DNA of 64,000 nucleotides from Chaetoceros tenuissimus (lineage: Eukaryota > Bacillariophyta > Thalassiosirophyceae > Chaetocerotales > Chaetocerotaceae). A program made the position numbers and the translations under genes. Below, in pieces: positions 1,646 through 56,880 of this stretch. Each line of letters begins with the position of its first letter. Position 1 is the first letter of the stretch. A model generated the notes under the pieces. That model had not been told where the DNA came from, ran no database searches, and saw nothing but the letters and a program-made list of their open reading frames with translations. The DNA is taken from assembly GCA_021927905.1 (NCBI GenBank), contig BLLK01000038.1, positions 2,046,001-2,110,000 on the forward strand, in the 5' to 3' direction.

Positions 1646-3139
1646 ATGTTAGTAGTGTCGAAGAATTATTTTCGTTTCCCCCGTTCAACTTTTGGACTTC
1701 AGCAGTGGCTTGAAGTAGATGATGACGACGTGGAGCTGAAGTTGCTTCGTGAACTTGTGAAGAAGAGGGTAACATCTCATCTCAAACGAAAGAAGAAGCG
1801 TCGAAGAAAGAAGGGGTCTTCGCTCAAGTTTTACGTGATCGACTTGGAAACTGGGAAGCCTCGCAGAGGGACATATCTTGATTCTCTATGGTGGTTGAAC
1901 TATGTTGTATTGAAAGACACACATCTGACTAAACCTATGAAAGATAGGTTTAGGAACCGCTTTCGAATTCCTTTTCACTGTTGGGAAGATCTTGTTGATG
2001 ACATGAAGAGTAATGATCTCTTTCGTCAATGGCATGATGGCACTAAGAGTGCGCACGGAAGATATTCTTCCCCTTTGGAATTACTATCTCTTGGCGGTTT
2101 GCGATATTTAGGAAGGAATTGCACCTTTGACGACTTAGAGGAACACACATTCATTTCTTTGTCTACTCACTATCGTTTTTTTGAGAAATTTATTGAGTAC
2201 GGATCAACTACATTATATGAGAAGTATGTTACATCACCTGCAGATAAGGAAGATTTTGCATCTGTAGGTCATGAATACAATCAAGCTGGGTTTCATGGTG
2301 CCATTGGGAGTATGGACGCAACTCACGTTATGATCAATGGCTGTAGATATGGTGCCCGCCGCTCTCATCTAGGCCATAAGTTAAACAAAACTGCAAGATC
2401 ATATAACATTGTAGTGAATCATAGGAGGCGTATTCTATCATCAACAATGGGGCATCCATCGACATGGAACGACAAGACAATTGTCCTGCACGATGACTTT
2501 ATAACCAAGATAAAAAGTGGTGAAATTGGAAATGACAAGGTCTTCTATTTACTAAGAAAAGATAAGGATGGAAATATATCTCGAGTGAAGTATATTGGTG
2601 TGTGGGTTATTGTGGATGGTGGCTATTTAAATTGGTCAGTAACTGTACCGCCGTTCCAGTGGTGTGATTTCCAATCACAACTGCGATGGTCGCAATGGCT
2701 GGAGTCATTGCGAAAGGATGTGGAGTGTACGTTTGGCATCATGAAAAAACGCTTTCGGTGTTTATCACATGGGATCGACGCTTTATCTGTTGAAAAGGCT
2801 GATAAAATTTGGAGGACTTGCTGTGCTATACATAATATGCTCCTCATTGAAGACGGGTATGATGACTTATGGGAAGAAGGCGAGCTTCCTTCCACAGAAT
2901 CAAATGCGTTTTCAATCATGAGATTGTTTGAACATAATGGTGAGAGTGAAGTCCATTGTGGTGATGAGGTTAGTACAACTTTTAACATGGATGAGGTCCC
3001 AATTTCGGAGGAGGTTGTGAGAATAGAAGAAATGAAATTGGATGATTTTCGTCAACGACTTGTCGAACATTTCCATATTCTATTCACAAGACGTGGGATT
3101 GTCTGGCCAAGAAATTCGAAACCACCAAGATCCGTGTAA
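1646..3139 (+). CDS. Harbinger-type DDE transposase
   Basis: 497 residues, uninterrupted. The DDE_4/PIF-Harbinger nuclease core is clear: D224 in GSMDATHV, D324 in VIVDGGY and E360 in VECTFGIMKKRF. The last two are 35 residues apart, the classic D35E spacing. C-terminal to the core is the family hallmark WRTCCAIHNMLL. The N-terminal region has a very basic patch (KRKKKRRRKK, about residues 48-57) that may act as a nuclear localisation or DNA-binding segment. The start chosen is the first ATG of the frame and follows the AT-rich subterminal region. In this superfamily the transposase works with a partner protein, here probably the convergent gene just downstream. Family assignment is firm; activity is inferred from intact residues and intact TIRs. 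Confidence 0.93.
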   Translation: MLVVSKNYFRFPRSTFGLQQWLEVDDDDVELKLLRELVKKRVTSHLKRKKKRRRKKGSSLKFYVIDLETGKPRRGTYLDSLWWLNYVVLKDTHLTKPMKDRFRNRFRIPFHCWEDLVDDMKSNDLFRQWHDGTKSAHGRYSSPLELLSLGGLRYLGRNCTFDDLEEHTFISLSTHYRFFEKFIEYGSTTLYEKYVTSPADKEDFASVGHEYNQAGFHGAIGSMDATHVMINGCRYGARRSHLGHKLNKTARSYNIVVNHRRRILSSTMGHPSTWNDKTIVLHDDFITKIKSGEIGNDKVFYLLRKDKDGNISRVKYIGVWVIVDGGYLNWSVTVPPFQWCDFQSQLRWSQWLESLRKDVECTFGIMKKRFRCLSHGIDALSVEKADKIWRTCCAIHNMLLIEDGYDDLWEEGELPSTESNAFSIMRLFEHNGESEVHCGDEVSTTFNMDEVPISEEVVRIEEMKLDDFRQRLVEHFHILFTRRGIVWPRNSKPPRSV

Positions 3140-8375: not shown

Positions 8376-11300
8376 ATGAACTCCAAAGCACTCTACATTG
8401 CCCTATTAGCACTTTTGAAAGTCACAAATGGTAGAGCACATGTTCCTTTTGAAGGAAAACAAAGAAAAGGAACAAGAGGATTGACTGGAAAAAATCGTCA
8501 GTTAAAAAAAAACAAGTCTCAGAAGACCAAGAAAGCTAAGTCGAACAAAGCTTCACCAACTGCAGCAGTAAGTGAAAGAAACTATAAAAATAAATTTATA
8601 TTTTTAAACAGACATTGACTTCCTTGTTATAACACAGCCGACTAGCACTCCCACAGCAAGTCCAACTTCTTCGCCAACTGAAGCAGTGAGTTTTGACTTA
8701 TTGATAGATTGATAGATTCAAGTGTATGAAGATTGACTAGCTAACATGAAACTTCTTTTCCTTTCCTCATTTTCACAGCCGACAAGCAGTCCAACTGAGT
8801 CGCCGACTGAAGCAGTGAGTTTTGACTTATTGATAGATTGATAGATTCAAAGAGTCAAGTGTATGAAGACTGACTAGCTAACATGAAACTTCTTTTCCTT
8901 TCCTCATTTTCACAGCCGACAAGCAGTCCAACTGAGTCGCCAACTGAAGCAGTGAGTTTTGACTTATTGATAGATTGATAGATTCAAAGAGTCAAGTGTA
9001 TGAAGATTGACTAGCTAACATGAAACTTCTTTTCTTTTCCTCATTTTCACAGCCGACAAGCCCTCCAACTGAGTCGCCAACTGAAGCAGTGAGTTTTGAC
9101 TTATTGATAGATTGATAGATTCAAAGAGTCAAGTGTATGAAGATTGACTAGCTAACATGAAACTTCTTTTCCTTTCCTCATTTTCACAGCCGACAAGCAG
9201 TCCAACTGAGTCGCCAACTGAAGCAGTGAGTTTTGACTTATTGATAGATTGATAGATTCAAAGAGTCAAGTGTATGAAGATTGACTAGCTAACATGAAAC
9301 TTCTTTTCCTTTCCTCATTTTCACAGCCGACAAGCAGTCCAACTGAGTCGCCAACTGAAGCAGTGAGTTTTGACTTATTGATAGATTGATAGATTCAAAG
9401 AGTCAAGTGTATGAAGATTGACTAGCTAACATGTAACTTCTTTTCCTTTCCTCATTTTCACAGCCGACAAGCAGTCCAACTGAGTCGCCAACTGAAGCAG
9501 TGAGTTTTGACTTATTGATAGATTGATAGATTCAAAGAGTCAAGTGTATGAAGATTGACTAGCTAACATGTAACTTCTTTTCCTTTCCTCATTTTCACAG
9601 CCGACAACAGTCCAACTGAGTCGCCAACTGAAGCAGTGAGTTTTGACTTATTGATAGATTGATAGATTCAAAGAGTCAAGTGTATGAAGATTGACTAGCT
9701 AACATGAAACTTATTTTCCTTTGCTCATTTTCACAGCCGACAAGCCCTCCAACTGAGTCGCCAACTGAAGCAGTGAGTTTTGACGACTTATTGATAGATT
9801 GATAGATTCAAAGAGTCAAGTGTATGAAGATTGACTAACATGAAACTTATTTTCCTTTCCTCGTTTTCACAGCCGACAAGCCCTCAAACTGAGTCGCCAA
9901 CTGAAGCAGTGAGTTTTGACGACTTATTGATAGATTGATAGATTCAAAGAGTCAAGTGTATGAAGATTGACTAACATGAAACTTCTTTTCCTTTCCTCGT
10001 TTTCACAGCCGACAAGCCCTCCAACTGAGTCGCCAACTGAAGCAGTGAGTTTTGACTTATTGATAGATTGATAGATTCAAAGAGTCAAGTGTATGAAGAT
10101 TGACTAGCTAACATGAAACTTATTTTCCTTTGCTCATTTTCACAGCCGACAAGCCCTCCAACTGAGTCGCCAACTGAACTTGACTTATTGATTTTCCTTT
10201 CCTCATTTTCACAGCTGACAAGCAGTCCAACTGAGTCGCCAACTGAAGCAGTGAGTTTTGACTTATTTATAGATTGATAGATTGATAGATTCAAAGAGTC
10301 AAGTGTATGAAGATTGACTAGAGCTAACATGAAACTTCTTTTCTTTTCCTCATTTTCACAGCCGACAAGCAGTCCAACTGAGTCGCCAACTGAAGCAGTG
10401 AGTTTTGACTTATTGATAGATTGATAGATTCAAAGAGTCAAGTGTATGAAGATTGACTAGAGCTAACATGAAACTTCTTTTCCTTTCCTCATTTTCACAG
10501 CCGACAAGCAGTCCAACTGAGTCGCCAACTGAAGCAGTGAGTTTTGACTTATTGATAGATTGATAGATTCAAAGAGTCAAGTGTATGAAGATTGACTAGC
10601 TAACATGAAACTTCTTTTCCTTTCCTCATTTTCACAGCCGACAAACAGTCCAACAAACAGTTCCGCTTAGCCATCTGTTGTGTTTCCTGTTCGTTTTTAA
10701 TATTATGAAAAAAGAGACTCTTCGAGAGCAGATGAAGATAGTCTATCATCTTGAAGTATACAAACAAGAGAGGAAGATTGACTAACATGAAACTTCTTTT
10801 CCTTTCCTCGTTTTCACAGCCGACAAGCCCTCCAACTGAGTCGCCAACTGAAGCAGTGAGTTTTGACGACTTATTGATAGATTGATAGATTCAAGTGTAT
10901 GAAGATTGACTAACATGAAACTTATTTTCCTTTCCTCGTTTTCACAGCCGACAAGCAGTCCAACTCTTTCGCCAACTGAAGCAGTGAGTTTTGACTTATT
11001 GATAGATTGATAGATTGATAGATTCAAGTGTATGAAGATTGACTAGCTAACATGAAACTTCTTTTCCTTTCCTTGTTTTCACAGCCGACAAGCAATCCAA
11101 CTGAGTCGCCAACTGAAGCAGTGAGTTTTGACGACTTATTGATAGATTGATAGATTCAAAGAGTCAAGTGTATGAAGATTGACTAACATGAAACTTCTTT
11201 TCCTTTCCTCGTTTTCACAGCCGACAAGCCCTCCAACTCGTTCGCCAACTGAAGCAGTGAGTTTTGACGACTTATTGATAGATTGATAGATTCAAAGAGC

Positions 11301-11393
11301 CAAGTGTATGAAGATTGACTAGCTAACATGAAACTTCTTTTCCTTTCCTCATTTTCACAGCCGACTAACAGTCCAACAAACAGTTCCGCTTAG
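8376..11393 (+). CDS. Secreted Lys/PT-rich protein encoded by tandem micro-exons
   Basis: Exon 1 (8376-8567) encodes a signal peptide (MNSKALYIALLALLKVTNG) and a very basic stretch with two R-x-L sites (RGL, RQL) and many K-x-x-K pairs, ending ASPTAA. Exon 2 (8638-8685) encodes PT-rich sequence. Eighteen copies of a 36-nt micro-exon follow, nearly all reading PTSSPTESPTEA or close variants. Each is bounded by a TTTTCACAG acceptor and a GTGAGT donor and is phase 0 on both sides. The last exon ends NSPTNSSA-stop (11361-11393). Exons start at 8779, 8916, 9053, 9190, 9327, 9464, 9601, 9737, 9873, 10009, 10146 (fused with 10215), 10362, 10501, 10820, 10948, 11085 and 11221. Introns are 92-111 nt, mostly 101. 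The exon at 9601 has 35 nt, and a duplicated terminal exon lies at 10638, so the actual transcript structure is uncertain. PT-rich stalks occur in diatom wall and surface proteins; a wall or silica role is inference. Confidence 0.8.
8779..11360 (+). repeat. Tandem array of exon-intron units, period about 137 bp
   Basis: The repeating unit is a 36-nt exon plus a ~101-nt intron that starts GTGAGTTTTGACTTATTGAT and ends in a pyrimidine-rich tract and TTTTCACAG. Introns are almost identical between copies, differing by the number of GATTGATA blocks, an occasional GAC insertion after GTGAGTTTTGAC, and presence or absence of TAGC before TAACATG. Copies without TAGC carry GACTAAC, a good branch-point sequence. 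Retaining an intron would bring an early in-frame stop (TTG ATA GAT TGA). The near identity of non-coding parts points to recent unequal crossing-over or gene conversion. Confidence 0.95.
10638..10775 (+). repeat. Internal duplicate of the terminal exon and 3' UTR
   Basis: The segment starting with a terminal exon (10638-10670, stop TAG at 10668) and the following ~105 bases is nearly identical to 11361-11497. Immediately after it the sequence rejoins an intron tail (GAAGATTGACTAACATG) and the array resumes with four more micro-exons. This is the expected product of an unequal exchange that copied the 3' end of the gene into its own array. It offers a possible early 3' end. Confidence 0.85.
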
Positions 11394-12217
11394 CCATCTG
11401 TTGTGTTTCCTGTTCGTTTTTAATATTATGAAAAAAGAGACTCTTCGAGAGCAGATGAAGATAGTCGATCATCTTGAAGTAGACAAAGAAGTGAGGGTTG
11501 TTGATTTTTTTTTTGCGAAGTTTTGTTCGAAAATGTTTTTGCGTCGAAGTAGTTGGTTCGGTTCATCTGTTATCTAATCGGAGGAGGATGTGTCGACATG
11601 AGATGATTGTTTTGGTTCCCTCGAACTCTGCCATCATATGAAGAAAAAAATAAAGTAAATAAAGAGATGGACTAGATGAAATGTTGCTGTTTGATTCTAC
11701 TTCTCTATTGAACAATTAGGAATTAACTTCACAAAGAGAAAAATGAAGTGGTATGTTGTACGATAGCTACATTATTATATTATAATTGTTGGATAGCCAA
11801 TTAGGAGCTTCATTGCTTGTCGGTCACTCCATCTGCAAATGAGAAAAAACGACGAAATTTGGACTTGGGCAACAACTTACAAGTATCATTTCGGCGCAGT
11901 GGTTTTGTAGAAATTGAAGTTCAAGTGATTTAAAATACATGTATAGGCCAGCATACGGATTACTCCGCATAGCCAGTAGTACATTTCAACAACATGAACG
12001 AAAAATTGCTTGATCATACCATATCTTTTACATTTTTTTTTCTCTCTCTCTCTCTCTCTCTTCTTTGTCTTATTCTTTTCGCACATCACTGTGCATACTT
12101 ACTAAGTTACTTGTTCATTAGAAAGGAAATAATAATAAAAAGACAACAATAATAAAAAGGTATCATCATATCTTCCATGCTTCCATAGGAATATTACATA
12201 AGCATCTATTTCATATA
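11394..12217. other. 3' UTR and intergenic spacer
   Basis: 824 bases between the last micro-exon and the Rab geranylgeranyltransferase gene. The first ~100 bases match the internal 3' UTR copy near 10671-10775. The rest holds a pure (TC)n tract at 12041-12060 and AT-rich sequence. No credible gene was seen. Confidence 0.6.
12041..12060 (+). repeat. (TC)n microsatellite
   Basis: Ten uninterrupted TC dinucleotides preceded by a run of T. It lies about 160 bases upstream of the ATG at 12218, on the pyrimidine-rich side of that promoter region. Confidence 0.95.
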
Positions 12218-15169: not shown

Positions 15170-15370
15170 TCCAAGAATGTCAAAAATCTGGAAAAAAGAA
15201 ATTAGAAAACAAGAATGTCAATACATAAAATAAACTCGGAATCTAAAAGTAAAGAGATCTGGTTATCTGCAACTTTGAATGTCCAAAGTATAGGCAACAG
15301 GCATTGTTGCCCGCGATAAATCGTCTAGTTGAATGTATCATCTGTAGGGGAACGGGGAAAGCTACATGCA

Positions 15371-15485
15371 AATTTTGGCACTTTTGGAAATTTTGGCACT
15401 TTTGGAAATTTTGGCAATTTTGGAACATTTTGGCAATTTTGGAACATTTTGGCAATTTTGGAACATTTTGGCAATTTTGGATATT
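15371..15485 (+). repeat. Minisatellite block 1 in MITE
   Basis: Two shorter units (TTTTGGCACTTTTGGAAA) then about four units of a 19-bp GGCAATTTTGGAACATTTT repeat. Confidence 0.9.
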
Positions 15486-15624
15486 TTTTTGTAAGAACAA
15501 TTTGTTGTTCTTTGGATTTGCAGATTTGGCGTAAAATATTGGCCCCCTCCGTAGTAAATACGTAATAAATACAACATAATTTCCGCGAAATCTGCAATTC
15601 AATATTAGAACAACAAAGTGTTCC

Positions 15625-15749
15625 TTTGGCAATTTTGGAACATTTTGGCAATTTTGGAACATTTTGGCAATTTTGGAACATTTTGGCAATTTTGGAACAT
15701 TTTGGCAATTTTGGACCATTTTGGCAATTTTGGAACATTTTGGAAATTC
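15625..15749 (+). repeat. Minisatellite block 2 in MITE
   Basis: About seven units of the same 19-bp repeat as block 1, in the same direction, with one unit carrying GGACC for GGAAC. The intervening segment may be an insertion into a once continuous array. Confidence 0.9.
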
Positions 15750-21186: not shown

Positions 21187-22893
21187 TTATTCATCATCCT
21201 CTGGTGGTCCAACGACCTTTGGAATATCCACTGGTTCATCTACCTTCTTCTTGGATGGCTTCTTTCTTGCACTTGTTTTAAAAGCTGGCTTGACCAAACT
21301 ATCCTCATACATTTTCAATTGCACTCTATAATTCTCCATTTCTGCATCAGTACACAAACATTCATCCAACTCTTTGGTAATTGCTTCTTCATCGATATTA
21401 GCTCCAATAAATACAATCTCCTGTCTACGATCTCCAAATTCATCCGATACGAAATCTTCCGTCAAGATACGATTCAATTCTTTTTCATTTTGACTAAATA
21501 CAATCTTGAGTTGATCTTTGGTAAGTTCCGCCCACCATTTGCCACTGGTACTCACACTAAAGTGTTTTCCAGCATGGGACCAGTACATTTTAGTATTGTG
21601 TCTCCAAATATCTTCCATTGGTCCATTCCAACTTGTAGGTGCCATCCAACAGAATCCTTTGGAACGAAGTAGTCCTTGGAATGGGGATGCTTCCTCTTGT
21701 TCTTCGTCTGATGATTTGGTAGGTGGATTGGTTAATTCTCCTAGATCCAATGTATCTACGACTGGTACTGGCCACATGTTTAACGCAACCAATAGTCTAG
21801 ATGGATTGAATGGACGATCGCGTTTGTATACGAAGTTTGTGATTCCTAGATTCTCAGTAGAGGTATTATGTGAGTGTGAATGGGAGTGAGTATGAGAGTG
21901 ACTTTCATCGGTGCATGCTGGATCATTGCATGTCTCAGCGGAATGATCTTCAGTACAGGTTGGATCTGCAGAATGGTCGTGACTATGAGAATGGTCCTCA
22001 GTACAATCTGGATCGTTACAAGCTTCATCATCCTTCTTCTTCTCATCTACATCCCGTTCAATCTTTCCAGCATCCAAGATTTGCTTCACAGAAATATCAC
22101 CAAATTTCGTTTCATAAAGAGTAGCCTTTTGATTCAAAATCTTTGCAAGAGAAGTTGCAACTTTAGTCTGCTCTTCACCAGCCAAATCAATTTTATTAAT
22201 CACCAAAACATCAGCCGATTCAATTTGCTCTGAAAGCAATTCTGGAACCTTTTTATCTGCTTCACAGTCAGCAGGATCGACCCACCCCTGTCTATCGCCA
22301 CTAGTATCCCAAGTCATCCAGTCCGTTCCAAAAGTATCTGCATCAACAAGAGTCACGACTTTATCCATGGTTGCATATTTCGTAGCAGGATGTTTGACCC
22401 AAGATGCATTCTCCCAATTATCACGCACAGCCTTGGGATCCGCTACACCACTCAATTCCACAACAATCGAGTCAAAATCCCTCTGAGTCCCATCTTCCGC
22501 AGTCATGAGTTGTTCAATGCTTGTCAAAAGTTCATCCGATAAAGAACAACATGCACAGCCATTTTGCAATTCAATAGTTCCTCCAGTAGAAGATACATCT
22601 GGATTGGCTAGTAGCTTGTTATCGATATTAATGGACGCAACGTCATTGACGACTATACCAATCTTTTGTCCTTGATTGTTCTTCAAGAGATTTTCAAGAG
22701 TTGTAGTTTTACCAGAACCTAGGAAGCCAGCTAGTAGAGTGATGGGTACCTTCTTTTCTTCTTCTTCTACTTGTTGAGTTGCATAAAGTGAAGAAGAATG
22801 TGTCGTTTTGGCTGGGAAAGTAAAGGCCTGTGATGACTCTAGGCCAAGAAATGCCAATGCTGCCAAGCTTAATATTCCTCGAGAGACAATCAT
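21187..22893 (-). CDS. Plastid-targeted CobW/COG0523 GTPase metallochaperone
   Basis: 568 residues. An N-terminal signal peptide ends in ESSQAF-TFPAKT, the diatom motif for import into the complex plastid. The G domain has Walker A GFLGSGKTT (residues 56-64), the CxCC metal site GCACC (C113, C115, C116) and the base-recognition motif NKIDLAGEE. A His/Cys/Asp-rich linker around residues 305-345 (repeats of HSHDHS, CNDPxCT, HSHTHSHS) probably binds metal. The CobW C-terminal domain follows, with the usual SKGFCWMA and HAGKHF segments. Family members use GTP to insert or deliver metals, notably Zn; the His-rich loop favours Zn or Co/Ni handling. The exact client in the plastid is unknown. Confidence 0.93.
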   Translation of the reverse strand: MIVSRGILSLAALAFLGLESSQAFTFPAKTTHSSSLYATQQVEEEEKKVPITLLAGFLGSGKTTTLENLLKNNQGQKIGIVVNDVASINIDNKLLANPDVSSTGGTIELQNGCACCSLSDELLTSIEQLMTAEDGTQRDFDSIVVELSGVADPKAVRDNWENASWVKHPATKYATMDKVVTLVDADTFGTDWMTWDTSGDRQGWVDPADCEADKKVPELLSEQIESADVLVINKIDLAGEEQTKVATSLAKILNQKATLYETKFGDISVKQILDAGKIERDVDEKKKDDEACNDPDCTEDHSHSHDHSADPTCTEDHSAETCNDPACTDESHSHTHSHSHSHNTSTENLGITNFVYKRDRPFNPSRLLVALNMWPVPVVDTLDLGELTNPPTKSSDEEQEEASPFQGLLRSKGFCWMAPTSWNGPMEDIWRHNTKMYWSHAGKHFSVSTSGKWWAELTKDQLKIVFSQNEKELNRILTEDFVSDEFGDRRQEIVFIGANIDEEAITKELDECLCTDAEMENYRVQLKMYEDSLVKPAFKTSARKKPSKKKVDEPVDIPKVVGPPEDDE

Positions 22894-24990: not shown

Positions 24991-26896
24991 CTATAGTTCT
25001 CTCTTCTTAATCAATAAGTGAAGTCCCTTCCGTGTGTGGATAGTTGCTCCACTTCTCATTCCTACTGGATGCTCAAGATTAAATGGCTCGTCCATAATAT
25101 CAACGCTTGTACTCTTGCTCTTGTCAAATTCGAAATCATATCTTCTCAATACCATTGCCAGAGTGACTGTTGCCTCGAGAGTTGCAAATTCATCTCCAAT
25201 ACACTTTCTAGCTCCTCCTCCAAACGGAAGGTATGCAAAGTCTGAAGCCAACTCATTTGGATAGAGTCTTCCCTCCCACTTTGCAGGGTCAAATCCTTCC
25301 CATTCTGGTACGTCTGGGTTAACATATTTTCTAGTGAAACGCTCTGGATCAAACTTTGTTGGTTCTGGCCAGAACTTTTCATCGCGATGAATATTATACA
25401 AGGCAAGGAACATGTCCATACCGCGAATGACTGTTGCTTCACGTCCAGCTCCCTTTGGTACCTTGTTCTCTTCACGACAACGACGAATCAAAAGAGGTGG
25501 TTGAGGATACAAACGAAGAGTCTCAGCTACAATCAGACGAATGTATTTCATCTCTTGAACATCTTCCAAAGTAGGAGTTCTATCACCAATGACTCTATCA
25601 ATCTCTTCCTGTGCCTTCTTCATGCATTCAGGGTTTCTCAACAATTCAAACAAGGACCAAGTCAATACTGCAGCAGTAGTTTCATGACCTGCGATCAACA
25701 TGGTCATCAAATCATCTCTCAATTGCTTATTATCAATATCTGCACCACGCATATCAACGAGGAATCTCAATAAACTAGGATCTTGGACATTTGCATAATC
25801 ACGCTTTTCCAATTCTTCAATGTCTTCCACTTGACGAGAACTCTTGGCTCTATTGATCAAATCATCCAAAACATCATTCAACAAATCCAAATCCTCATTG
25901 AAAGCTCTCAAACGAGGCACGAGTTGATTTGCAAATGGAAGATCCCAATATGGTGCTGGAGTCATGGATCTATGCTCTGCTTCGACAAGTGCTCTGTATA
26001 CCGCCTTTACAACAGGAGATTCCTTGGTTACAGAATCAAATTCATAGTTGAATACAGATTTTCCAATGATATCAAGAGCAACCGAACAGAATTTCTCTTC
26101 CATTTCTACTTTTGAATCTCCTTCTGCGATTTTATCAAGACTTGCAATCAATGGTACGTTGCAGTATCCAAAAAGTCCCACCATGTGATTAAGCCATGCT
26201 GAAAGTACAGTATCATAATAGCATGAGTAATTGTTTCCATAGGTACATGCTAAAATAAAAGTATCATTCTAGAATCTGGAACTCACCTTTATGAAACGCT
26301 GGAACGATTTGACGTCTTCTCACAGACCAAGTCTCAGGATCAGCAGGAATCAATCCTTTGCCCATAATAGGCTCCAAAATCTCCGCCAAAAGTCCCTTAT
26401 CATACATGGTATTCGCATCTCTCAAGATATGTTTAGCTTGTACAGGATCACTAATGACCAAGAAACTCTTTGGTCCAAAGCATAACTTATAAGGACTACC
26501 ATATTCATTATAGTATCTCTGCAAACCGATAAACTGTGTTCCATCTGCTATATCTGCAATATCTCCTTCTGCCAAAGGACATCCATCAAGAGATGGAAAC
26601 CCTCCATAAATTTGTTCAATGTTGGTACGTAATACATTTGCAGAATCGCCAAAGGTACAGTCCGTCCCTGGTTCACCTTTTTGCATGACATCAAGTTTCC
26701 ATACGTATTCCCACCACCATGGTAGTCCTTCAACTTCCTTTTCTGTCTTTTCATCTTCTACAGTTGCATATCTTGTAGTTGATGATTTGTAAATGTTTTT
26801 TGTGGAAAGTGAAGAAAAGGTTGGAGTGAATGCCTGTCCTACTGGCATGTAGGATAGAAGAGCAGTCACTGTGACTGCTGCTGATGAGATCTTCAT
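24991..26896 (-). CDS. Plastid CYP97-type cytochrome P450 (carotenoid hydroxylase-like)
   Basis: Two exons on the minus strand: 26287-26896 and 24991-26198, with an 88-nt intron (GTGAGT donor, TTTCAG acceptor) that joins F-H-K to A-W-L-N-H in frame; 605 residues in all. The N-terminus is a signal peptide ending in VGQAF-TPTF, a diatom plastid presequence. P450 landmarks are all present: I-helix AGHETTA, K-helix ETLR, FDPERF, and the haem-binding loop FGGGARKCIGDEFA. The segment GKGLIPADPETWSVRRRQIVPAFH is typical of the CYP97 clan, whose members hydroxylate carotene rings on the way to xanthophylls such as lutein or zeaxanthin. In diatoms CYP97-like enzymes are candidates for steps towards fucoxanthin. 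Substrate is inferred from the family. Confidence 0.93.
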
Positions 26897-30949: not shown

Positions 30950-32597
30950 TCACGTATCCCAATCTATAGGTTCGATCGATAAGTACCTCTTATTGCAATC
31001 AAACATGCATTTATCCAGATATTGGATGCCGCTACCTTTCGATGAATAGCGACACTCAATAAGACATGCTAGTCCTGCATTCATTCTACCTCCTGTGATT
31101 CCTGTGCAATAATGTATTCCATCCGATGTAATGGCTGAAGGAATCGTACAATTTGAATCTAAGCATACGTGTCCAACCTTCTTGCAAATAGTTTTTCGCT
31201 TGTCGAAACATTCAGTCGTCGTATTTTTCATAATGAAATCTAATACTTGAGATTCTTCGATAAAGTCATTGTAGCTCGTGGCTGCATTCAGCTTTTGTTG
31301 AATCTTGTCTCGATGTTCTACTGATATCAAACCCACTTGAATGGAATTCTGTAAAAAGAGATGAATGCTGAATGCATACATATCCATGACCAATATTCGT
31401 TTGAACTTTCTTCGTCCATCTCGAAAGTACGATATTATATTCTCATTTGATTTATTGAAATCTTTTGCTAGTTCCCATATGTATGTATTCAATTCTTTCA
31501 CATCTGGTATATTCTTGAGATTGTTCATTACTGGAATAGTTTGCAAAACGACCGTTTCAGCATCAAATACATCAAATGACAATCGTATTGTTTCATTCAA
31601 GTTCTCTTTCATCAGTTGCCATTGTGAATCATACCTCCGAAGATCTATCCAGCCGGGCTAACACACATGCATATTCAAATCAGTACCTTGATAAGTATAT
31701 ATGTTGCTGAAATTATAGGACGAAGACACTTACCGATAGTGTATTAACAATAACATCAAAACCTTCTTCACGACATTTGTCTGCGTCCATATTTGGTAAA
31801 GCTAAACGAAGAGCAGTATTTGTAGAATTTAACTGCTGCCATATATCATGACAATCGTAGCTCTGCCTTTTCTCGTCTCTATCTAAGCTTTCTATATTGT
31901 CTCTCCATAGGTAATTCAATCTTCTCAATTCATGGACATCGTACGATGAGAAACCTCCACCCTGTGAATAGAATTGTCAATCAGTATTCTTTCCTTCTAT
32001 CTAGAAAATTATGAATGAAACTCAATAGATTTCCATACTTACCCGCAAAGGAGCCATCAGTTCCAAATCATCAACGTCATTTTCACAAGGTAGTCCATTC
32101 ACTCTCAGACCCGATATTCGTCCTCCCTGATGTGTAAGAGCAACATGCGTACTTTCATGTTCACCTCTCGCAAAACGAATCACATGTCTATCCTTTGGAC
32201 TAGAAGACTCTTGAAATATCTGAGACAATTGAACAGCTACCGAGTCTCCAACAAATAATATTCGTAAATTCGTTTCAACCAATGCGTTAAAGTCAAATAT
32301 TCCCTTTTTCTGTAATGATGTAGGCAGGACGTGATCATCTCCACATGGACCTACAAATCTTGCATAAATGTTTTGAATCTCATTTTTGACAAGCTTGTAG
32401 GTAAATAGTTTTTCTGTTCTTTCCCTATGCTTTCTTCTTTCTACATGCTTTGTTTTTTCAGCGACTACTTCAGTTCGAGCTTTCAATATTGCCAGATTTA
32501 TGGATGCTACGATGAAAACAAGAACAAAGCAAATGACCACTGCTAACAACGAATAATATGTTTTTCTTTTCTTGGGGCGGTGAAGTACTAGACTCAT
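30950..32597 (-). CDS. Golgi-type membrane protein, PC-esterase/SGNH-like
   Basis: Three exons on the minus strand, 32043-32597, 31734-31961 and 30950-31657, with introns of 81 and 76 nt (GTAAGT donors; TTCACAG and TGTTAG acceptors), all phase 0; 496 residues. A short basic cytoplasmic end is followed by one membrane anchor (LLAVVICFVLVFIVASINLAIL), giving type II topology. The luminal part has FVGDS (G117-D118-S119) after a beta strand and a late SDGIHYC (D440, H443). GDS plus D-x-x-H is the catalytic arrangement of PC-esterases, including plant TRICHOME BIREFRINGENCE-LIKE polysaccharide O-acetyltransferases. The late cysteines (about residues 410-480) suggest disulfides. A role in modifying secreted polysaccharide is plausible but only inferred from these motifs. 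Confidence 0.7.
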
Positions 32598-36769: not shown

Positions 36770-36802
36770 AAAATCTCGGAAGCTTTCTGAGTCGAGAAAT
36801 TA
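36770..36802 (+). repeat. Outer inverted repeat, left arm
   Basis: 33 bases beginning AAAATCTCGGAAGCTTTCTG, a perfect reverse complement of 44958-44990. The TTAA target of the 7.7-kb transposon overlaps its inner end. Without that insertion the arms would bound a ~560-bp segment, so this looks like a MITE-like element hit by the larger transposon. No outer target duplication was found. Confidence 0.75.
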
Positions 36803-36803
36803 A

Positions 36804-37079
36804 GACCTGATTTTTGTAACAGTGGAAGGAAGTAAGAAAAAGTAAGAAAAAAGTAAGAAAAAAAGTAAGAAAATTTGACCAAAAGTAAGAAAATCTGTAA
36901 GAAAACCGTAAGAAAAAAGTAAGAAAATCTCTGGTTTTATTTTATTTCACTAGGTATCACTGGACCCCCTCTTCATTTTGGGTGGCGCTCAACAAAAGGT
37001 TCGGAAGGGTTCGCGGAGTATCACAACATATCCACATCAAGTTCAAAATTTAAGGCAAAACAAGCATGGTAGCTGTTGT
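36804..37079 (+). repeat. Left long TIR of the TTAA transposon
   Basis: Outer ~120 bases carry about eight GTAAGAAA units (36830-36945), mirrored on the right side. A less conserved middle follows, then a well-kept inner part (about 37027-37079) that in reverse complement encodes the same LPCLFCLKF ending as the gene at 43574-44236. Confidence 0.88.
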
Positions 37080-37103
37080 TCACTGCCTTCACTAATAAAC
37101 ATC

Positions 37104-40100
37104 ATGGAGAATGTTGAGAAGGATGCGATGAAGAATGTTGATGATCCTAGTACCGATAAGGTTGAATTACAAGCGATGGAGAACGAGGGAGAACAAGAAA
37201 GGGGAATGAAGTCTCCTCCTAAGAATACAACACTGGATAAAAGCAAGAAGAATGAGAAGAAAGAGGATACACCTTTCTCTGTTGATAAAACCCATTCTGG
37301 AGAAAAAAGACGTCAAACCCCTTTTTCAATATTCTCAAGTGATAAGAAAGCAAAGTTAGATACGATATCCACCATAGAACCCCTTTCAATAATTGGAACT
37401 GAGAAGCGACAGAAAACAATAACAATAGAGACACCTCTTAGTGTTGAAGGAAACAATGAGAAAAATATTTCTAAAAAACTCTATTTCAATGAGTTGGAAA
37501 CTATTCAAGAGTGTCAACAGAACGAAGCGCCTACTTCAGTCTCTGCTCTACCAGCGTCTAGTGGGACTTATACCCCCATGACTCCTATGATTCAACGATC
37601 GCCAGTATATTCAACTCCTATGGTGAAAGAAGGAACTTTGAATACTAACATCATTCCCATGGATGTTCAAGCGGTTTCAATAATACGCTCACTTGGAGAT
37701 ATGGTAAAAAATGCAAGTGGAAAGGAGGCTGTACAGTTTCTTTCTTTGTACGTCGATGCTGGATTGACCAAGAAGGATGCAGAAGAAATGACTGGACGGA
37801 AGATCCATGGGAGGCTGTGGGCAAAGGCAAGACGTCACTGTAATTATCCTGGTCCAGGAAAGCAAGTTGTGGAAACATTTTGGAAAAATCATCGGAAACG
37901 GATTGGAGACGAACAACTAATTGAATTCATGGAATGGTTGAGGGCTGCAGACCTTATTCAAAATTTGTCGTATGGGCAGAAAGTAGTACAGTTTTCAAAT
38001 GGTCGACATGTGGCTATTGAGTCTGTCAAACGCACTGATCTCATACGAAATATTGTAAAAAAGTATTATGAATTTATGGAAAGTCGTGGAGAGGAGGAGA
38101 ACGCTATTGATGATGTCGATGACGATGATGACGATGAGATTCCAAATCTTGCAGAAAGATCACCAGAGGGTTATGATAGTGAAAGCGATGACGATGACGA
38201 TGAATTTGAGGCAGAAATAGACTTTGTAGGTGAGGATTTCCTTTTCGTTTTACCGTGACTTCATTATATATAAATTCTCACTTTTCTATTCCAAACCAGA
38301 TGACGATAGATGTTCCGCTACGTGTGCAAAGACAAGTCGAAGATGTCTTCTTCATCAGAACCACATTAACAAAGATGGTAGAAATAGTAGGCATAAATTT
38401 ACTCCAAGGCATATGCTTAGCCCATCTACTATAGAGAAGCTTCTGAAAACACTTACATCGGGAGGAATCAAGTCCAGGGCTGGATTGGATAACATTGATG
38501 TTGAGAAAGGGCATGAGAATTTCGAAGCTATGAAAAATCTCATTGATACAATGTGCACAATGCTTGGCGACGATAACAAAAAGAAAACTCTGAAAGAAAA
38601 AGTCGAGGGGATCGTCGTATTCCACAAAGTCCATTTTGAGCGACATCTGAAAGCAAAGTCGAACAGACACAGTTGCATGTGTCTACATTGTGGGTTCTAT
38701 TCCACGGATGACCCAATTCAATGTCCTACTGACCACTGCACTGTACCTTGTCAAGACTGTCAAGACAGTTTTGCAATCTTTGGAGAAATGACTAAACTTT
38801 TTGAAGAAGTGCAGGAACGCTTTGGAGATAATGAAAGTCAGCCATGGCTGCAAGACGACATATTGCTTTGGGGGAGTCAAATCAAGGACTTCTCTCAAAA
38901 CCTGAGGGATTATCGCGCTCACCTAGCCGATAAGGTTAGCGAAGCAAATTTCGACGACAAAGACAGAGATCTAGGAGAAGGTGAGGCTCTTGTAGTCATT
39001 GACTACAAAATGAAAGTTCTTCCGAGAAGCTTTCGTGAAAAAATGAAAGATTGGTATTCGAAAAGAGGAATTAGTATTCTCGGGGTCGAAATTCACATCA
39101 TTGTGAATGGAGAAAGGAAAGTGTTCTACCATTTCTTTATCTCAGATGATGTGAATCAAGATGCAGAAGCTGTCTTGTGCGCAAAGCACTTTCTTTATTC
39201 CAAGGTGCTTCCAAGATATGGGATCAAAACTGTGAAATTTCGATGTGATGGTGCTGGTTGCTTTTCTTCTCAAGAAGCAAAGTCTTCTATGAAGCTTTGG
39301 GACGATCTTGCTCGAAATGCAGCAGCTAATGATAATGTCTTCTGCTACGAGACTGCCTACAAAGTCATGGTTGCTGGTTGCGGAAAAACCGCACTTGATG
39401 GGATGTTTGGCATTATGACTATGCATCTCATTCGCCTAGTAAACTGTGGTAATTCATTTAACAATGCCGATGAATTGTTTCGACTCTTGGCTGCGTATCC
39501 TCTGCATCGATCTTACTATCACCGTTTCGAACCAGATCGAGAGTTACTTGTCTGGCCAAAAGCTTCAAAGGATCTGCATTTGAAACAATTTCACCATTTA
39601 AAATTAGATAGTAAGAATGGGGAGGTCATTGGAAAGATCCATAGTGATCTTTCCACTGATATAGTCTTCACTTTGGACAAAACCGATGGATTTGCTCGCA
39701 AAAAGTTCTCGATGTTGCAATATGATCATATCCCAATTTCAGAACAAAATGGTGAGTTCGTTGGACCAAGTATTTTTACTTTCGCGCCCTTCAGAGTCTC
39801 ACATACCCATACATGCAATAGCCACAAAAGACCCTTGTGTGCATGTCAAAGAAACTTCATTTCCTTATGATTCCTTGACAAAAGAACTGCTGAGTATGCT
39901 AACCAATGCTCCATCGAGAGATCCAAGGTCTATACAGGAGCGAATTTTAGAACAGACCAATGATCGAATCAACAAAAGCGAAGATTTGGTTAGTAAAAAA
40001 TGGGAAAAATATAAAGAAGAAATGAAAATGAGTGGGTATCTTTGTTGTCCTGAAACAGATGAAAAAACAATGAATAAATGCACTTGTATCTTCAAATCTG

Positions 40101-40171
40101 AAAAGGCTCTACAGAAACATATTGCTGAGAAAAGGCATGTATGTTGTAGACTAGTGAATTTGTTGAGGTAA
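37104..40171 (+). CDS. Transposase of the TTAA element, interrupted by LTR insertion
   Basis: Exons 37104-38229, 38300-39751 and 39795 onward. Introns are 70 nt (GTGAGG donor, AACCAG acceptor) and 43 nt (GTGAGT donor, CCTTCAG acceptor); both restore frame exactly. The Asp/Lys/Thr-rich N-terminus ends in an acidic run (DDDDDDE). The middle has a Cys/His cluster (CMCLHCGFYSTDD, CPTDHCTVPCQDCQD). The likely RNase-H-like nuclease core has three acidic blocks: VVIDYKMKVL, KFRCDGAGCFSSQEAK and GCGKTALDGMFGIM. A C2H2 finger (CTCIFKSEKALQKHIAEKRH) follows. The G-x-GKT-x-LDGxFG block is striking and also seen in many unassigned algal transposon proteins, as far as I recall. The coding region is cut at 40142 by the LTR remnant and continues at 40887, so this copy is not expected to make a full enzyme. 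Confidence 0.78.
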
Positions 40172-41730: not shown

Positions 41731-43326
41731 TTAGTTTCCCTTCTTAAGTTTCTCACGTAGTTCTTTTTCCAATGTTTTTACTTGCTTTCTCCTTGGTTTG
41801 AATGGGTCTCCAATGTACTTCCAATACAGATCCTGCAACTTTTCATGTTTCTTTGGATCCGACCTTGCGCTATCAATCATTTGCTCAGTGAGTTCTTCAC
41901 TTTGAGCTGTACCTAAAGAGCTTTGAGCTGTAGATGCTGACCTCTTCCTGTTAGTAATGTACATCTTCGAATCTTCATCATGAAATGGGCAATAATACAT
42001 AGACTCGTAGCCATTCTTTGTTCCGCATGGTAAACAGAATGGAATTTTGCACTCTCTACACAGGTGATTGGTTGTTCGCGTTCTGCAAAAGGGACAAAGA
42101 GTACATTGGTAACGTTTATCCCTAACTTGCTTCCCTGCATCGTCCACATACTTTTCTGAGAAAGTGTTGAAGTCATCAGAGACTAGATCATTTGGAATTA
42201 CATTGGGTCCACCATCTCTAGCATCGTTAATAGTTACAGAAGGAGGAGAGGGTGCAGGAGAGCGCAAGTCTTCATCAACTTGGTTCTCTGAATGACTATC
42301 ACTTTGAGAGGCCTGTTCCGAACTACTACTAACTCGGGCAGAAATATCCAATTCACCTTCCGGCTCAAAAGGAAACTTTGCATCATCCAGGACTTTCTTT
42401 TGAAGAGCATTCAATTTAAGCTTCTCTTTGCGAATACAAGCTATAGCTTTCTCCAAGTTGGGTCCCTGTGATGCTGGTTCCTTGAAGGTCTTATTATTCT
42501 TAGTGTAGACACCGATTGCATATTGGAATGCTTCTTCAACAGAGATAAACCATGGAAAGTTCACTGCTTCAAGAAAAAGCATGTGTGTATCAGTGAGTTT
42601 TCCTTTCTTTTGCAACTCAATGACTCTGCCAATATCAACTTTCTTTCCAGCAGAAAGAACATCGTAGGGAGGTGATTCAAAACCATGAGCCTGAGCCAAT
42701 TCCATAAGACTCTCGCAAAACTTCTGAACAAAACTATCTATTGACTCTTCTTCGTTGCTACTTCCTGCATTGTTTGAACGAGAATCTTGAGTGCTTCTTG
42801 CGTTGCTTTCAGTTGCAAGATTGGTGCTAGTCGCCTCCTTCATTTTTGCCTTTCCTTTCTTTACACTTCCGGACTTTTTAATTTCTTCATAGAGTTGTGG
42901 ATTCGTTTCCATTTGTCCAAGAACTTCATCAAAGTTAGACAAGCCAGCTGCTTGAAGCGTTTTTGCACTACGGTATGCCTCACTGTGTTCCCCACGAATT
43001 TTAGCATTCCAAATTTGGTTCCCGACCCATTTTCCAACTTCGTACATTCTAGATTTTGTCTTGTCCTCTTTATTAGCAAATGGATACTGTTGGTCGGTTC
43101 GTATGTGCACTTTTGCTGTTTCCCAGTCTTTTCTTCCTTCTTCCTTCCATTCGTTCCTTTGCTTTTCAATAAGATGTTTGATTGCCCTAATGTAATTCCG
43201 AGATTTCATTTGCGGATTTCTCTTTCTCTTTTTGTCTTGTGGTTGCTGATCTACTTGATTCCCATCTTCTACACTCTCATCGAAACTTACTTCATGTGGA
43301 GCTGTACTATCATCGTTAGATGTCAT
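41731..43326 (-). CDS. Accessory zinc-finger protein of the TTAA transposon
   Basis: 531 residues, uninterrupted. The N-terminal half is acidic then basic (KKRKRNPQMKSRNYIRAIKH), with a helical region (GKWVGNQIWNAKIRGEHSEA). A low-complexity Ser/Asp linker follows. A C-terminal Cys-rich module starts QCTLCPFCRTRTTNHLCREC and continues IPFCLPCGTKNG, with spacing like the zinc finger at the end of piggyBac-type transposases (C-x2-C, T-T-x-x-x-C-x2-C, C-x2-C). That resemblance plus the TTAA target is suggestive, but no DDD nuclease core is present here. It lies between the transposase and the small acidic gene and probably helps end binding (inference). It shares a 247-base divergent promoter with the gene at 43574. 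Confidence 0.7.
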   Translation of the reverse strand: MTSNDDSTAPHEVSFDESVEDGNQVDQQPQDKKRKRNPQMKSRNYIRAIKHLIEKQRNEWKEEGRKDWETAKVHIRTDQQYPFANKEDKTKSRMYEVGKWVGNQIWNAKIRGEHSEAYRSAKTLQAAGLSNFDEVLGQMETNPQLYEEIKKSGSVKKGKAKMKEATSTNLATESNARSTQDSRSNNAGSSNEEESIDSFVQKFCESLMELAQAHGFESPPYDVLSAGKKVDIGRVIELQKKGKLTDTHMLFLEAVNFPWFISVEEAFQYAIGVYTKNNKTFKEPASQGPNLEKAIACIRKEKLKLNALQKKVLDDAKFPFEPEGELDISARVSSSSEQASQSDSHSENQVDEDLRSPAPSPPSVTINDARDGGPNVIPNDLVSDDFNTFSEKYVDDAGKQVRDKRYQCTLCPFCRTRTTNHLCRECKIPFCLPCGTKNGYESMYYCPFHDEDSKMYITNRKRSASTAQSSLGTAQSEELTEQMIDSARSDPKKHEKLQDLYWKYIGDPFKPRRKQVKTLEKELREKLKKGN

Positions 43327-44236: not shown

Positions 44237-44459
44237 ACTTGATGTGGATGTTGATGTGTCGCGAGTACTCCCACCTTGAGGAAGTACAAGGGAGGGGGTC
44301 CAGTGATACATAGTGAAATAAAATAAAACCAGAGATTTTCTTACTTTTTTCTTACGGTTTTCTTACAGATTTTCTTACTTTTGGTCAAATTTTCTTACTT
44401 TTTTTCTTACTTTTTTCTTACTTTTTCTTACTTCCTTCCACTGTTACAAAAATCAGGTC
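44201..44459 (-). repeat. Right long TIR of the TTAA transposon
   Basis: Reverse complement of 36804-37079 with a diverged middle. The outer part holds mirrored TTTCTTAC units (44336-44432). The inner part overlaps the last codons of the gene at 43574-44236. Confidence 0.88.
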
Positions 44460-44463
44460 TTAA

Positions 44464-55995: not shown

Positions 55996-56880
55996 TCAGC
56001 TTAAGGACTCATCATCAAATTCCATCATCAAAGTTCGCTTGACAGGGACAGTGACTGTTTTAGGAATAGAAATAATGATAGGATACGAGGCACCATCGAT
56101 ATTCTTTTCAAATACTTCTAAACCAATATCATCTTTCCCACTGATACTCATTTCATCTCTATCCTCATTGTCGATGCTACTACCACTCTCATTATCTTGA
56201 CTCTCTTCATCTTCTTTTAAAAGCAAGTATAAATTTTGAAGCTGAATATTAGAATGTCCAAGAATCATTGTGAGTGCAATGATGAGGTTAACCTCATTTT
56301 GACGCTCTTCATTCTCAAATTGCTTCAATAGTTGTTTGGTCGAAGATAAATGGTACAACTCCTTTGATGGAGCAAAAGAGCTGGATTCGCTCGAGCTTGA
56401 GCTACTGTCACTTGACATACTTGAATCGCTTGAGCTAGAACTAGTATCACTTGACAAACTGGATCCACTCGAGCTTGAGCTACTATCACCTGACATACTA
56501 TCATTTTCGCTGCTACTTGAGTAAGAGCAAAAGGTACCAATACCCTTGAAACCACCAATGTCAAGATCCAACTTCTTAATTGGATCGGAACTAGGCATAG
56601 TGCTTGATCCAGAATTCTTGTCGACATCAAAAAAATTAAATGGATCCGCATTGAAGGAATGAAGAGAGAACCAATCCTTCAATTTATTCTTCTTTTCCCC
56701 CTTTATTGTACCAAACAATCCTTCCTCCATCACGGTATGCCATTCTACTTCTTGATCATGTCTCTCGATAAGCTTAGTAATTAATTCCGATACTGAATTT
56801 GCAAATTCCATTTCTTCTTGAATGAGAGTACATTGTCTTTGAATGTGAGGACAGTGTTGTTCTTTTTGAAAAGAAGACAA
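55996..56880 (-). CDS. Ser-rich acidic protein, copy B, 5' end damaged
   Basis: About 290 codons of the same family as 59014-60660. Shared parts: QCTLIQEEMEF, VSELITKLIE, APSKELYHLSSTKQLLKQFE, LQNLYLLLKEDEESQDNESG and the C-terminus DDIGLEVFEKNIDGASYP to FDDESLS. The central block is Ser-rich (GDSSSSSSGSSLSSDTSSSS). The frame has no ATG at its start; sequence upstream (to about 56950) still matches copy C but one base out of frame, and the repeat-bearing N-terminus of copy C is missing. The first usable ATG is at 56811 (MEFANSVSELITKL). It may make a shortened protein or be an early pseudogene. No known domain; acidic Ser clusters would suit casein-kinase-2 phosphorylation (inference). Confidence 0.6.
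   Translation of the reverse strand: MSSFQKEQHCPHIQRQCTLIQEEMEFANSVSELITKLIERHDQEVEWHTVMEEGLFGTIKGEKKNKLKDWFSLHSFNADPFNFFDVDKNSGSSTMPSSDPIKKLDLDIGGFKGIGTFCSYSSSSENDSMSGDSSSSSSGSSLSSDTSSSSSDSSMSSDSSSSSSESSSFAPSKELYHLSSTKQLLKQFENEERQNEVNLIIALTMILGHSNIQLQNLYLLLKEDEESQDNESGSSIDNEDRDEMSISGKDDIGLEVFEKNIDGASYPIIISIPKTVTVPVKRTLMMEFDDESLS

What the first reader, a model, noticed from the sequence alone, without database searches (positions are those of the whole stretch)
8376..11393. A gene built from tandem micro-exons, each duplicated with its own intron
Eighteen near-identical 36-nt exons, all phase 0, each with a nearly identical ~101-nt intron, encode a 12-residue PT repeat. Because the unit is exon plus intron, repeat number can change by unequal crossing-over between introns, and any set of exons can be skipped without frame loss. 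Retained introns stop quickly. This could make a large family of length variants from one locus, a splice-tuned molecular ruler for a secreted Lys/PT-rich protein.
Basis: partly seen in the sequence, partly recalled or inferred. Interest (0 to 1): 0.88.

Follow-up and report, generated by a model that had tools for sequence, protein, structure and literature searches.

The report
Repeat-protein gene of tandem exon–intron units
A gene that probably belongs to a photosynthetic alga has grown by copying one tiny exon together with its intron about eighteen times, which should let the length of a secreted, possibly cell-wall, protein change easily; genes built this way are known elsewhere, and no RNA data yet show that cells choose among the exons.

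Summary
The array is real: of 18 units, 16 have an exact 36-nt exon (PTSSPTESPTEA type) between TTTTCACAG and GTGAGT, with introns of 92-111 nt. It is less tidy than described. One unit (u7) has 35 nt. One (u11) lost its donor and fuses in frame with u12. A second copy of the stop-bearing last exon (T1) lies before the last four units. With every unit included the frame shifts and stops at 214 aa; the PT frame to the usual stop needs u7 skipped (257 or 305 aa). Splicing is well supported by sequence: donor, CTAAC and acceptor are invariant in the 18 introns that have a donor. Exons differ more than introns, though not significantly in every subset, and some outer units are the most diverged, as in other tandem exon–intron genes. 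The protein would have a signal-peptide-like start, two RXL sites, a lysine cluster and Pfam PT repeats, resembling diatom silaffin-like proteins. Best reading: a spliced secreted gene expanded by unequal exchange, with length varying mainly between alleles. Splice-tuned length is possible but untested. New member of a known kind (SOWgp, SmPoMuc, spider silk, Cryptococcus CNN00420, Tetrahymena LRR arrays).

The parts
8376..8567 (+). exon 1: start codon, signal-peptide-like hydrophobic N-terminus, RGL and RQL sites, Lys cluster; 192 nt, phase 0, GTAAGT donor
8568..8637 (+). intron 1, GTAAGT...AACACAG; no BLAST hit to the array introns
8638..8685 (+). exon 2, 48 nt, PTSTPTASPTSSPTEA; most diverged unit; followed by the first array-type intron (93 nt, 8686-8778)
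8779..9600 (+). units u1-u6: six 36-nt exons, each followed by a 101-nt intron
9601..9736 (+). unit u7: exon of 35 nt (9601-9635), one base short, shifts the frame if included; intron intact (101 nt)
9737..10145 (+). units u8-u10: three 36-nt exons with introns of 100, 100 and 101 nt
10146..10250 (+). composite exon u11+u12: donor of u11 missing, what is left of its intron reads through in frame (LDLLIFLSSFSQ)
10251..10361 (+). intron after u12, 111 nt, the longest
10362..10637 (+). units u13-u14: 36-nt exons with introns of 103 and 101 nt
10638..10773 (+). T1: internal copy of the terminal exon (PTNSPTNSSA, TAG at 10668-10670) and part of the 3' untranslated stretch, 96.3% identical to 11361-11496; no AATAAA in it
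10782..10819 (+). 3' part of an array intron (38 nt, 97.4% identical to the end of the u1 intron) behind T1, with acceptor but no array-type donor
10820..11360 (+). units u15-u18: four 36-nt exons downstream of the internal stop exon; introns 92, 101, 100 and 104 nt
11361..11393 (+). T2: terminal coding exon PTNSPTNSSA and stop; AATAAA at 11649 and 11658 downstream

Best explanation
This is a spliced gene for a secreted, disordered PT-repeat protein, most likely of a diatom or a related photosynthetic protist. One 36-nt phase-0 exon and its ~101-nt intron were duplicated together many times (shown by the sequence pattern). Each unit brings its own donor, CTAAC motif and acceptor, so a new copy can be spliced at once and adds 12 residues in frame; copy-number change by unequal exchange is therefore tolerated and alters protein length directly (inferred). 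The predicted protein has a signal-peptide-like start, RXL sites, a short Lys-rich basic segment and a long acidic Pro/Thr/Ser/Glu tail, an architecture resembling diatom silaffin-like proteins that carry PT repeats; the tail probably acts as a modified spacer at the cell wall (inferred). Length varies mainly between alleles and strains (inferred). Defects such as u7 and T1 are passed over by skipping, or make part of the output non-productive (inferred).
For: GTGAGT, CTAAC at -34 and TTTTCACAG invariant in the 18 introns that have a donor, although intron length runs from 92 to 111 nt. Without splicing after exon 2 the frame ends 8 codons on. A GTGAGT...CAG intron of 88 nt (26199-26286) is supported by an uninterrupted P450 reading across it in the same window. 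Over 15 contiguous units exon differences go with those of the upstream and downstream intron (Mantel r 0.37 and 0.44, p 0.017 and 0.014). Block repeats: identical introns at u3/u4/u14, u5/u6, u7/u10 and u9/u17. The duplicated 3' end T1 shows that a larger segment was copied. Exon 2, u16 and u18 are the units most different from the rest. The spliced reading matches Pfam PT at 71.9 bits, cut-off 26.2. Exon 1 combines a hydrophobic start, RXL and a pentalysine-type cluster, together in 1 of 111 ATG ORFs of 60 aa or more in the window (criteria chosen after reading exon 1). The P450 is closest to chloroplast LUTEIN DEFICIENT 5 (1.3e-95, against about 1e-42 for the best bacterial-type P450), which suggests a photosynthetic host.
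Against: The full-inclusion transcript is out of frame after u7 and stops at 214 aa, so the allele as assembled may be partly broken or mis-assembled. T1 puts a stop before u15-u18. Exons are not better conserved than introns (pi 0.075 against 0.021), so purifying selection on the coding sequence is not shown. Exon and downstream intron do not covary significantly over all 18 units (r 0.18, p 0.15). The edge effect is uneven: u1 and u17 are near average and u8, u9, u12 and u15 inside the array are above it. The species was not identified and no relative was found in collections that hold viruses and prokaryotes. No RNA evidence.
Confidence: 0.6

Rival explanations
1. Splice-tuned ruler: the cell makes a ladder of protein lengths from one allele by variable exon inclusion, possibly regulated.
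For: 16 exons are symmetric and interchangeable. The 35-nt u7, the two acceptors 69 nt apart at u11/u12 and the two stop exons T1/T2 require or allow some choice; leaving out u7 is needed for the PT frame.
Against: No transcript data. Splice signals of all units are equal, so nothing marks some exons as optional. The one two-unit stretch folded (8916-9189) is no more stable than shuffles (z 1.17; 173 of 200 shuffles fold at least as well).
Confidence: 0.15
2. A decaying or allele-specific broken copy: a minisatellite-like array in a gene that no longer makes a useful full-length product in this allele.
For: Frameshift in u7, lost donor in u11, internal stop exon T1; exons vary at least as much as introns.
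Against: 18 GTGAGT donors and their acceptors are intact. The T of each PT pair never changes and the P changes in two units (u12, u9), while most variation falls at residues 4 and 7. Leaving out one exon gives an open frame to the stop.
Confidence: 0.17
3. Partly an assembly or base-calling artefact: unit count, the u7 deletion or the place of T1 is wrong because such similar repeats are hard to assemble.
For: Many units are alike (10 exon types and 13 intron types among 18 units). Reads and coverage are not available.
Against: Units carry distinguishing variants arranged in blocks. The u7 deletion is not in a homopolymer.
Confidence: 0.08

Closest known systems
Coccidioides SOWgp
   Same: Repeated exons and their introns nearly identical; repeat number polymorphic; centre of the array more conserved than the edges; unequal crossing-over (as told in PMC2576457, discussion part 1 of 2; the SOWgp paper itself was not seen)
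   Different: A fungal wall glycoprotein; homology to the present protein was not tested. Copy-number polymorphism is reported there, unknown here.
Cryptococcus neoformans CNN00420
   Same: A ~107-nt repeat holding a full intron and exon ends, multiplied so that strains differ in the number of intron-bearing repeats; splicing backed by ESTs (PMC2395259, section 10, and passages)
   Different: Six introns in all; the present array has 18 units with 36-nt exons.
Schistosoma SmPoMuc and modular spider silk genes
   Same: Exon with flanking intron as the tandem unit; in silk genes introns are more homogenised than exons (PMC2576457)
   Different: SmPoMuc units are about 1 kb (passages); its authors found no centre-edge gradient and favour gene conversion. 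The silk papers listed were not opened.
Tetrahymena 90-bp-exon LRR arrays
   Same: Protist genes with tandem arrays of exons of one exact length and one intron phase; unequal crossing-over proposed (PMC6564038, passages)
   Different: Thousands of genes, phase 2 introns, LRR proteins; here one gene, phase 0, disordered PT repeat.
Silaffin-like proteins of the diatom Thalassiosira pseudonana
   Same: Signal peptide, RXL sites, pentalysine clusters and PT repeats each occur in that group (PMC5501833, passages; PMC9650480, passages; PMC4557024, passages)
   Different: The strict KXXK criterion (X = S or G) is not met; no silicon response or location known; host not confirmed as a diatom.

Membership tests
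Tandem exon-intron repeat genes (SOWgp / CNN00420 / silk type) | Repeated exons with nearly identical introns in one gene | tested here: met
   17 u-type units with a donor: exon pi 0.058, intron pi 0.025
Tandem exon-intron repeat genes (SOWgp / CNN00420 / silk type) | Introns more homogeneous than exons | tested here: inconclusive
   p 0.004 for all 18, 0.002 for 16 distinct units, 0.035 without exon 2, 0.10 for u1-u14 only and 0.10 without e2, u16, u18
Tandem exon-intron repeat genes (SOWgp / CNN00420 / silk type) | Edge units more diverged than central ones | tested here: inconclusive
   p 0.054 (two units each side), 0.013 (e2, u18), 0.006 (e2, u1, u16-u18), sets chosen after seeing the distances
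Tandem exon-intron repeat genes (SOWgp / CNN00420 / silk type) | Splicing shown by transcripts; copy number differs between individuals | not testable with these tools
   no RNA, no second allele or strain; no genome held
Silaffin-like proteins | N-terminal ER signal peptide | tested here: inconclusive
   best 9-residue Kyte-Doolittle mean 2.87; 28 of 111 window ORFs pass the same loose test of 2.0; SignalP not available
Silaffin-like proteins | Repeated KXXK with X = S or G | tested here: not met
   0 strict motifs in exon 1; 6 KXXK with any X
Silaffin-like proteins | Pentalysine cluster (five non-consecutive Lys in 12-14 residues) and RXL site | tested here: met
   KKNKSQKTKKAK and overlapping stretches; RGL at 34, RQL at 41. 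Both together in 2 of 111 window ORFs
Silaffin-like proteins | Silicon-responsive expression, location in biosilica | not testable with these tools
   no expression or location data
PT disordered repeat (Pfam PF04886) | Score above the curated cut-off | tested here: met
   71.9 bits against 26.2 for the spliced 257-aa reading; exon 1 alone has no match and the composite exon alone 17 bits, below the cut-off
Introner elements | Same intron sequence in unrelated genes | tested here: not met
   BLAST of the u1 intron against the 64-kb window: beyond the array only short weak hits, best 35 nt at 80%, E 0.005. The rest of the genome was not available
[quoted passage not shown]
   array introns 92-111 nt; the feature is from the start of the abstract of PMC10526429 in the listing

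The most novel reading that the evidence does not exclude
From one allele the alga makes a graded ladder of secreted wall-protein lengths: interchangeable 36-nt exons are included in varying number, T1 and T2 give the same C-terminus at two different lengths, and u7 acts as a frame switch that, when included (and the u11/u12 exon left out), turns the acidic PT tail into a long basic HRQALQLSRQLK repeat that itself carries RQL sites (343 aa in one such reading).
Probability: 0.08. Interest if true: 0.75.

Novelty: new member of a known kind. Interest (0 to 1): 0.42.

Why it matters
It is a compact natural example of how a gene can change protein length without breaking: the copied unit carries its own intron, so each added or lost copy can be spliced cleanly and adds or removes 12 residues. 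With 18 copies, exons of only 36 nt and diagnostic variants in many units, it would be a convenient test of how a spliceosome pairs many nearly identical sites in a row, and of whether the length of a secreted protein differs between strains. If the protein is a silaffin-like wall component, array length could be compared directly with wall structure.

Tried and rejected
Introner or transposed intron: not supported within the window; the one array intron used as query (u1) has only weak short hits outside the array. Unspliced minisatellite: reading on from exon 2 without splicing stops after 8 codons, while splice signals are invariant. Structured pre-mRNA guiding exon choice: one two-unit stretch does not fold better than shuffles. 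Relatives: an intron pattern in viral contigs, an exon pattern in genome contigs and the exon 1 protein in viral contigs gave none (in one search, 28 stretches matched a pattern and none was confirmed). These collections hold viruses and prokaryotes, so the misses say little. Coding constraint from indel counts: one 1-nt exon indel plus the u11 deletion against several intron indels; no formal test made, no conclusion drawn. The first unit alignment started exon 2 three bases late; corrected. Intron scan: 40 candidates, 3 passed the open-frame filter; I cite two (31658-31733 and 31962-32042) and set aside the third (21326-21555), which lies inside the CobW ORF; the scan, which demands a CTRAY motif, did not list the P450 intron seen. 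CTAAC as a branch-point motif is recalled knowledge. Oomycete-type RXLR signal (recalled motif): exon 1 has RQLK, not RXLR, and the window has a chloroplast-type P450. Tandem duplication of AGGT as the origin of the introns (PMC3443670, passages) was considered; nothing here tests it. Paper searches for a diatom example: 'micro-exon, tandem, diatom' gave 0 papers. Searches (20 of 114 listed; 12 of 48; 8 of 8; 12 of 46) showed none that I recognised as one from titles and abstract starts; of these I opened passages only, in PMC5501833, PMC9650480, PMC4557024 and PMC6564038.

Full report
What is there. The window holds a 3-kb array with a unit of about 137 nt. Reading from the ATG at 8376, exon 1 (8376-8567) ends at a GTAAGT donor, and exon 2 (8638-8685, 48 nt) ends at GTGAGT. 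It is followed by 18 repeat units. Of these 18, 16 have an exact 36-nt exon between TTTTCACAG and GTGAGT; u7 has 35 nt; u11 has lost its donor, so that u11 and u12 form one open 105-nt exon. A terminal exon PTNSPTNSSA-stop ends the gene at 11393 (T2), and a second copy (T1, stop at 10668-10670) lies before the last four units. 136 nt starting with T1 are 96.3% identical to the gene end. T1 lacks the AATAAA present at 11649 and 11658.

Is it spliced? The 18 introns with a donor (exon 2 and 17 units; u11 and the stretch behind T1 have none and were left out) begin GTGAGT, have CTAAC at the same distance (-34) and end TTTTCACAG, with no AG between, although their length runs from 92 to 111 nt. 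Because the units are recent copies, invariance alone is weaker evidence than it looks; but the length changes leave CTAAC in place. Without splicing after exon 2, translation stops eight codons on; with intron 1 kept it stops 16 codons after exon 1. The same window has a P450 gene whose reading is restored by removing an 88-nt GTGAGT...CAG intron (26199-26286), and two further introns with GTAAGT donors are suggested by open frames at 31658-31733 and 31962-32042 (2 of the 3 that passed out of 40 candidates). Splicing is therefore well supported by sequence; no RNA was seen.

What the transcript would make (eight readings). With every unit included and T1 as end, u7 shifts the frame and the reading stops in the composite exon after 214 residues; with u7 and the second acceptor at u12 it stops after 200. 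Without u7, the reading stays open to T1 (257 aa, or 234 aa with the second acceptor), or, if T1 is passed over, to T2 (305 aa). With u7 kept and the composite exon left out, the shifted frame stays open: no stop in the T1 stretch given, and 343 aa through u15-u18 into T2, with a basic HRQALQLSRQLK-type repeat. The remaining two readings are the unspliced ones above. So free skipping holds for the 16 exact exons, not for all.

How it grew. Among 18 units (exon 2 and 17 others) there are 10 exon types and 13 intron types, with identical introns at u3/u4/u14, u5/u6, u7/u10 and u9/u17. Exon and flanking introns covary over the 15 contiguous units (r 0.37 upstream, 0.44 downstream, p 0.017 and 0.014), but over all 18 with the downstream intron r is 0.18, p 0.15. 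Units close together are more alike (r 0.25, p 0.016). Mean difference from the other units is greatest for exon 2 (10.8), u16 (10.2) and u18 (8.4), but u1 (5.9) and u17 (6.5) at the edges are not unusual, and u15, u9, u8 and u12 are at 7.1-7.8; p for an edge effect is 0.006 to 0.054 according to the set, sets chosen after seeing the data. Exons vary more than introns: 0.075 against 0.021 for all 18 (p 0.003-0.004), 0.057 against 0.022 without exon 2 (p 0.035), but p is 0.10 for u1-u14 and 0.10 without e2, u16 and u18. Exon changes fall mainly at codons 4 and 7; codon 3 differs only in exon 2; codon 1 differs in exon 2 (silent) and u12 (P to L), codon 5 in u9 (P to Q), codon 9 in u1 (silent); the other codons are unchanged apart from the u7 deletion. 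This fits unequal exchange with flexible spacer residues; selection is not proven.

What the protein looks like. Exon 1 codes for a hydrophobic start, RGL and RQL, and a lysine cluster KKNKSQKTKKAKSNK. The spliced 257-aa reading matches Pfam PT disordered repeat at 71.9 bits, cut-off 26.2. The PT part is acidic (calculated pI 4.05), the 21 residues after RQL basic (pI 10.85). In T. pseudonana a screen by signal peptide and KXXK motifs gave 10 new proteins, of which eight had pentalysine clusters and all had RXL sites; 14 of the silaffin-like and KXXK proteins, TPSIL1 among them, also had PT repeats (PMC5501833, passages). The present protein meets the RXL, pentalysine and PT features but not the strict KXXK one, and its signal peptide was judged by hydropathy only; so I say that it resembles that group and do not file it there. 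That the host is photosynthetic is suggested by the P450 match to LUTEIN DEFICIENT 5; that it is a diatom is inference.

Comparison with what is known. Exon-plus-intron tandem arrays are a known kind: SOWgp, SmPoMuc and modular silk genes (PMC2576457, passages and discussion part 1 of 2), CNN00420 of Cryptococcus with a 107-nt repeat whose number differs between strains (PMC2395259, passages and section 10), and 90-bp-exon LRR arrays of Tetrahymena (PMC6564038, passages). What seems less usual here is the combination: exons of only 36 nt, 18 units, a repeated stop exon and a silaffin-like N-terminus. In my searches (titles and abstract starts of the listed papers) I recognised no diatom example, which is weak evidence of absence.

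Verdict. The splice-tuned ruler is possible and untested. I give 0.6 to the allele-length reading, 0.15 to a regulated ladder, 0.17 to a partly broken allele and 0.08 to assembly error.

Noticed in passing
window 36800-36971 and 44292-44463: 172-nt inverted repeats, 99% complementary, 7320 nt apart: ends of a probable 7.7-kb DNA transposon. ORFs 36978-38258 and 41731-43326, 38230-39870 and 39686-40171 inside have no Pfam match; of six inner ORFs scanned in PHROGs one had a weak hit (E 0.006).
   Followed up: partly
window 55996-56880 and 59014-60660, minus strand: Two nearby Ser-rich ORFs with similar C-termini (by eye); the second carries 48-bp tandem repeats (14.6 copies) coding RDSNSSSSSSIISLGL-type units.
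   Followed up: partly
window 1646-3139, plus strand: ORF with Plant_tran and DDE_Tnp_4 transposase matches.
   Followed up: no
window 15370-15748: Two 19-bp minisatellites (ATTTTGGCAATTTTGGAAC type) overlapping minus-strand ORFs 15243-15719 and 15325-15738.
   Followed up: no
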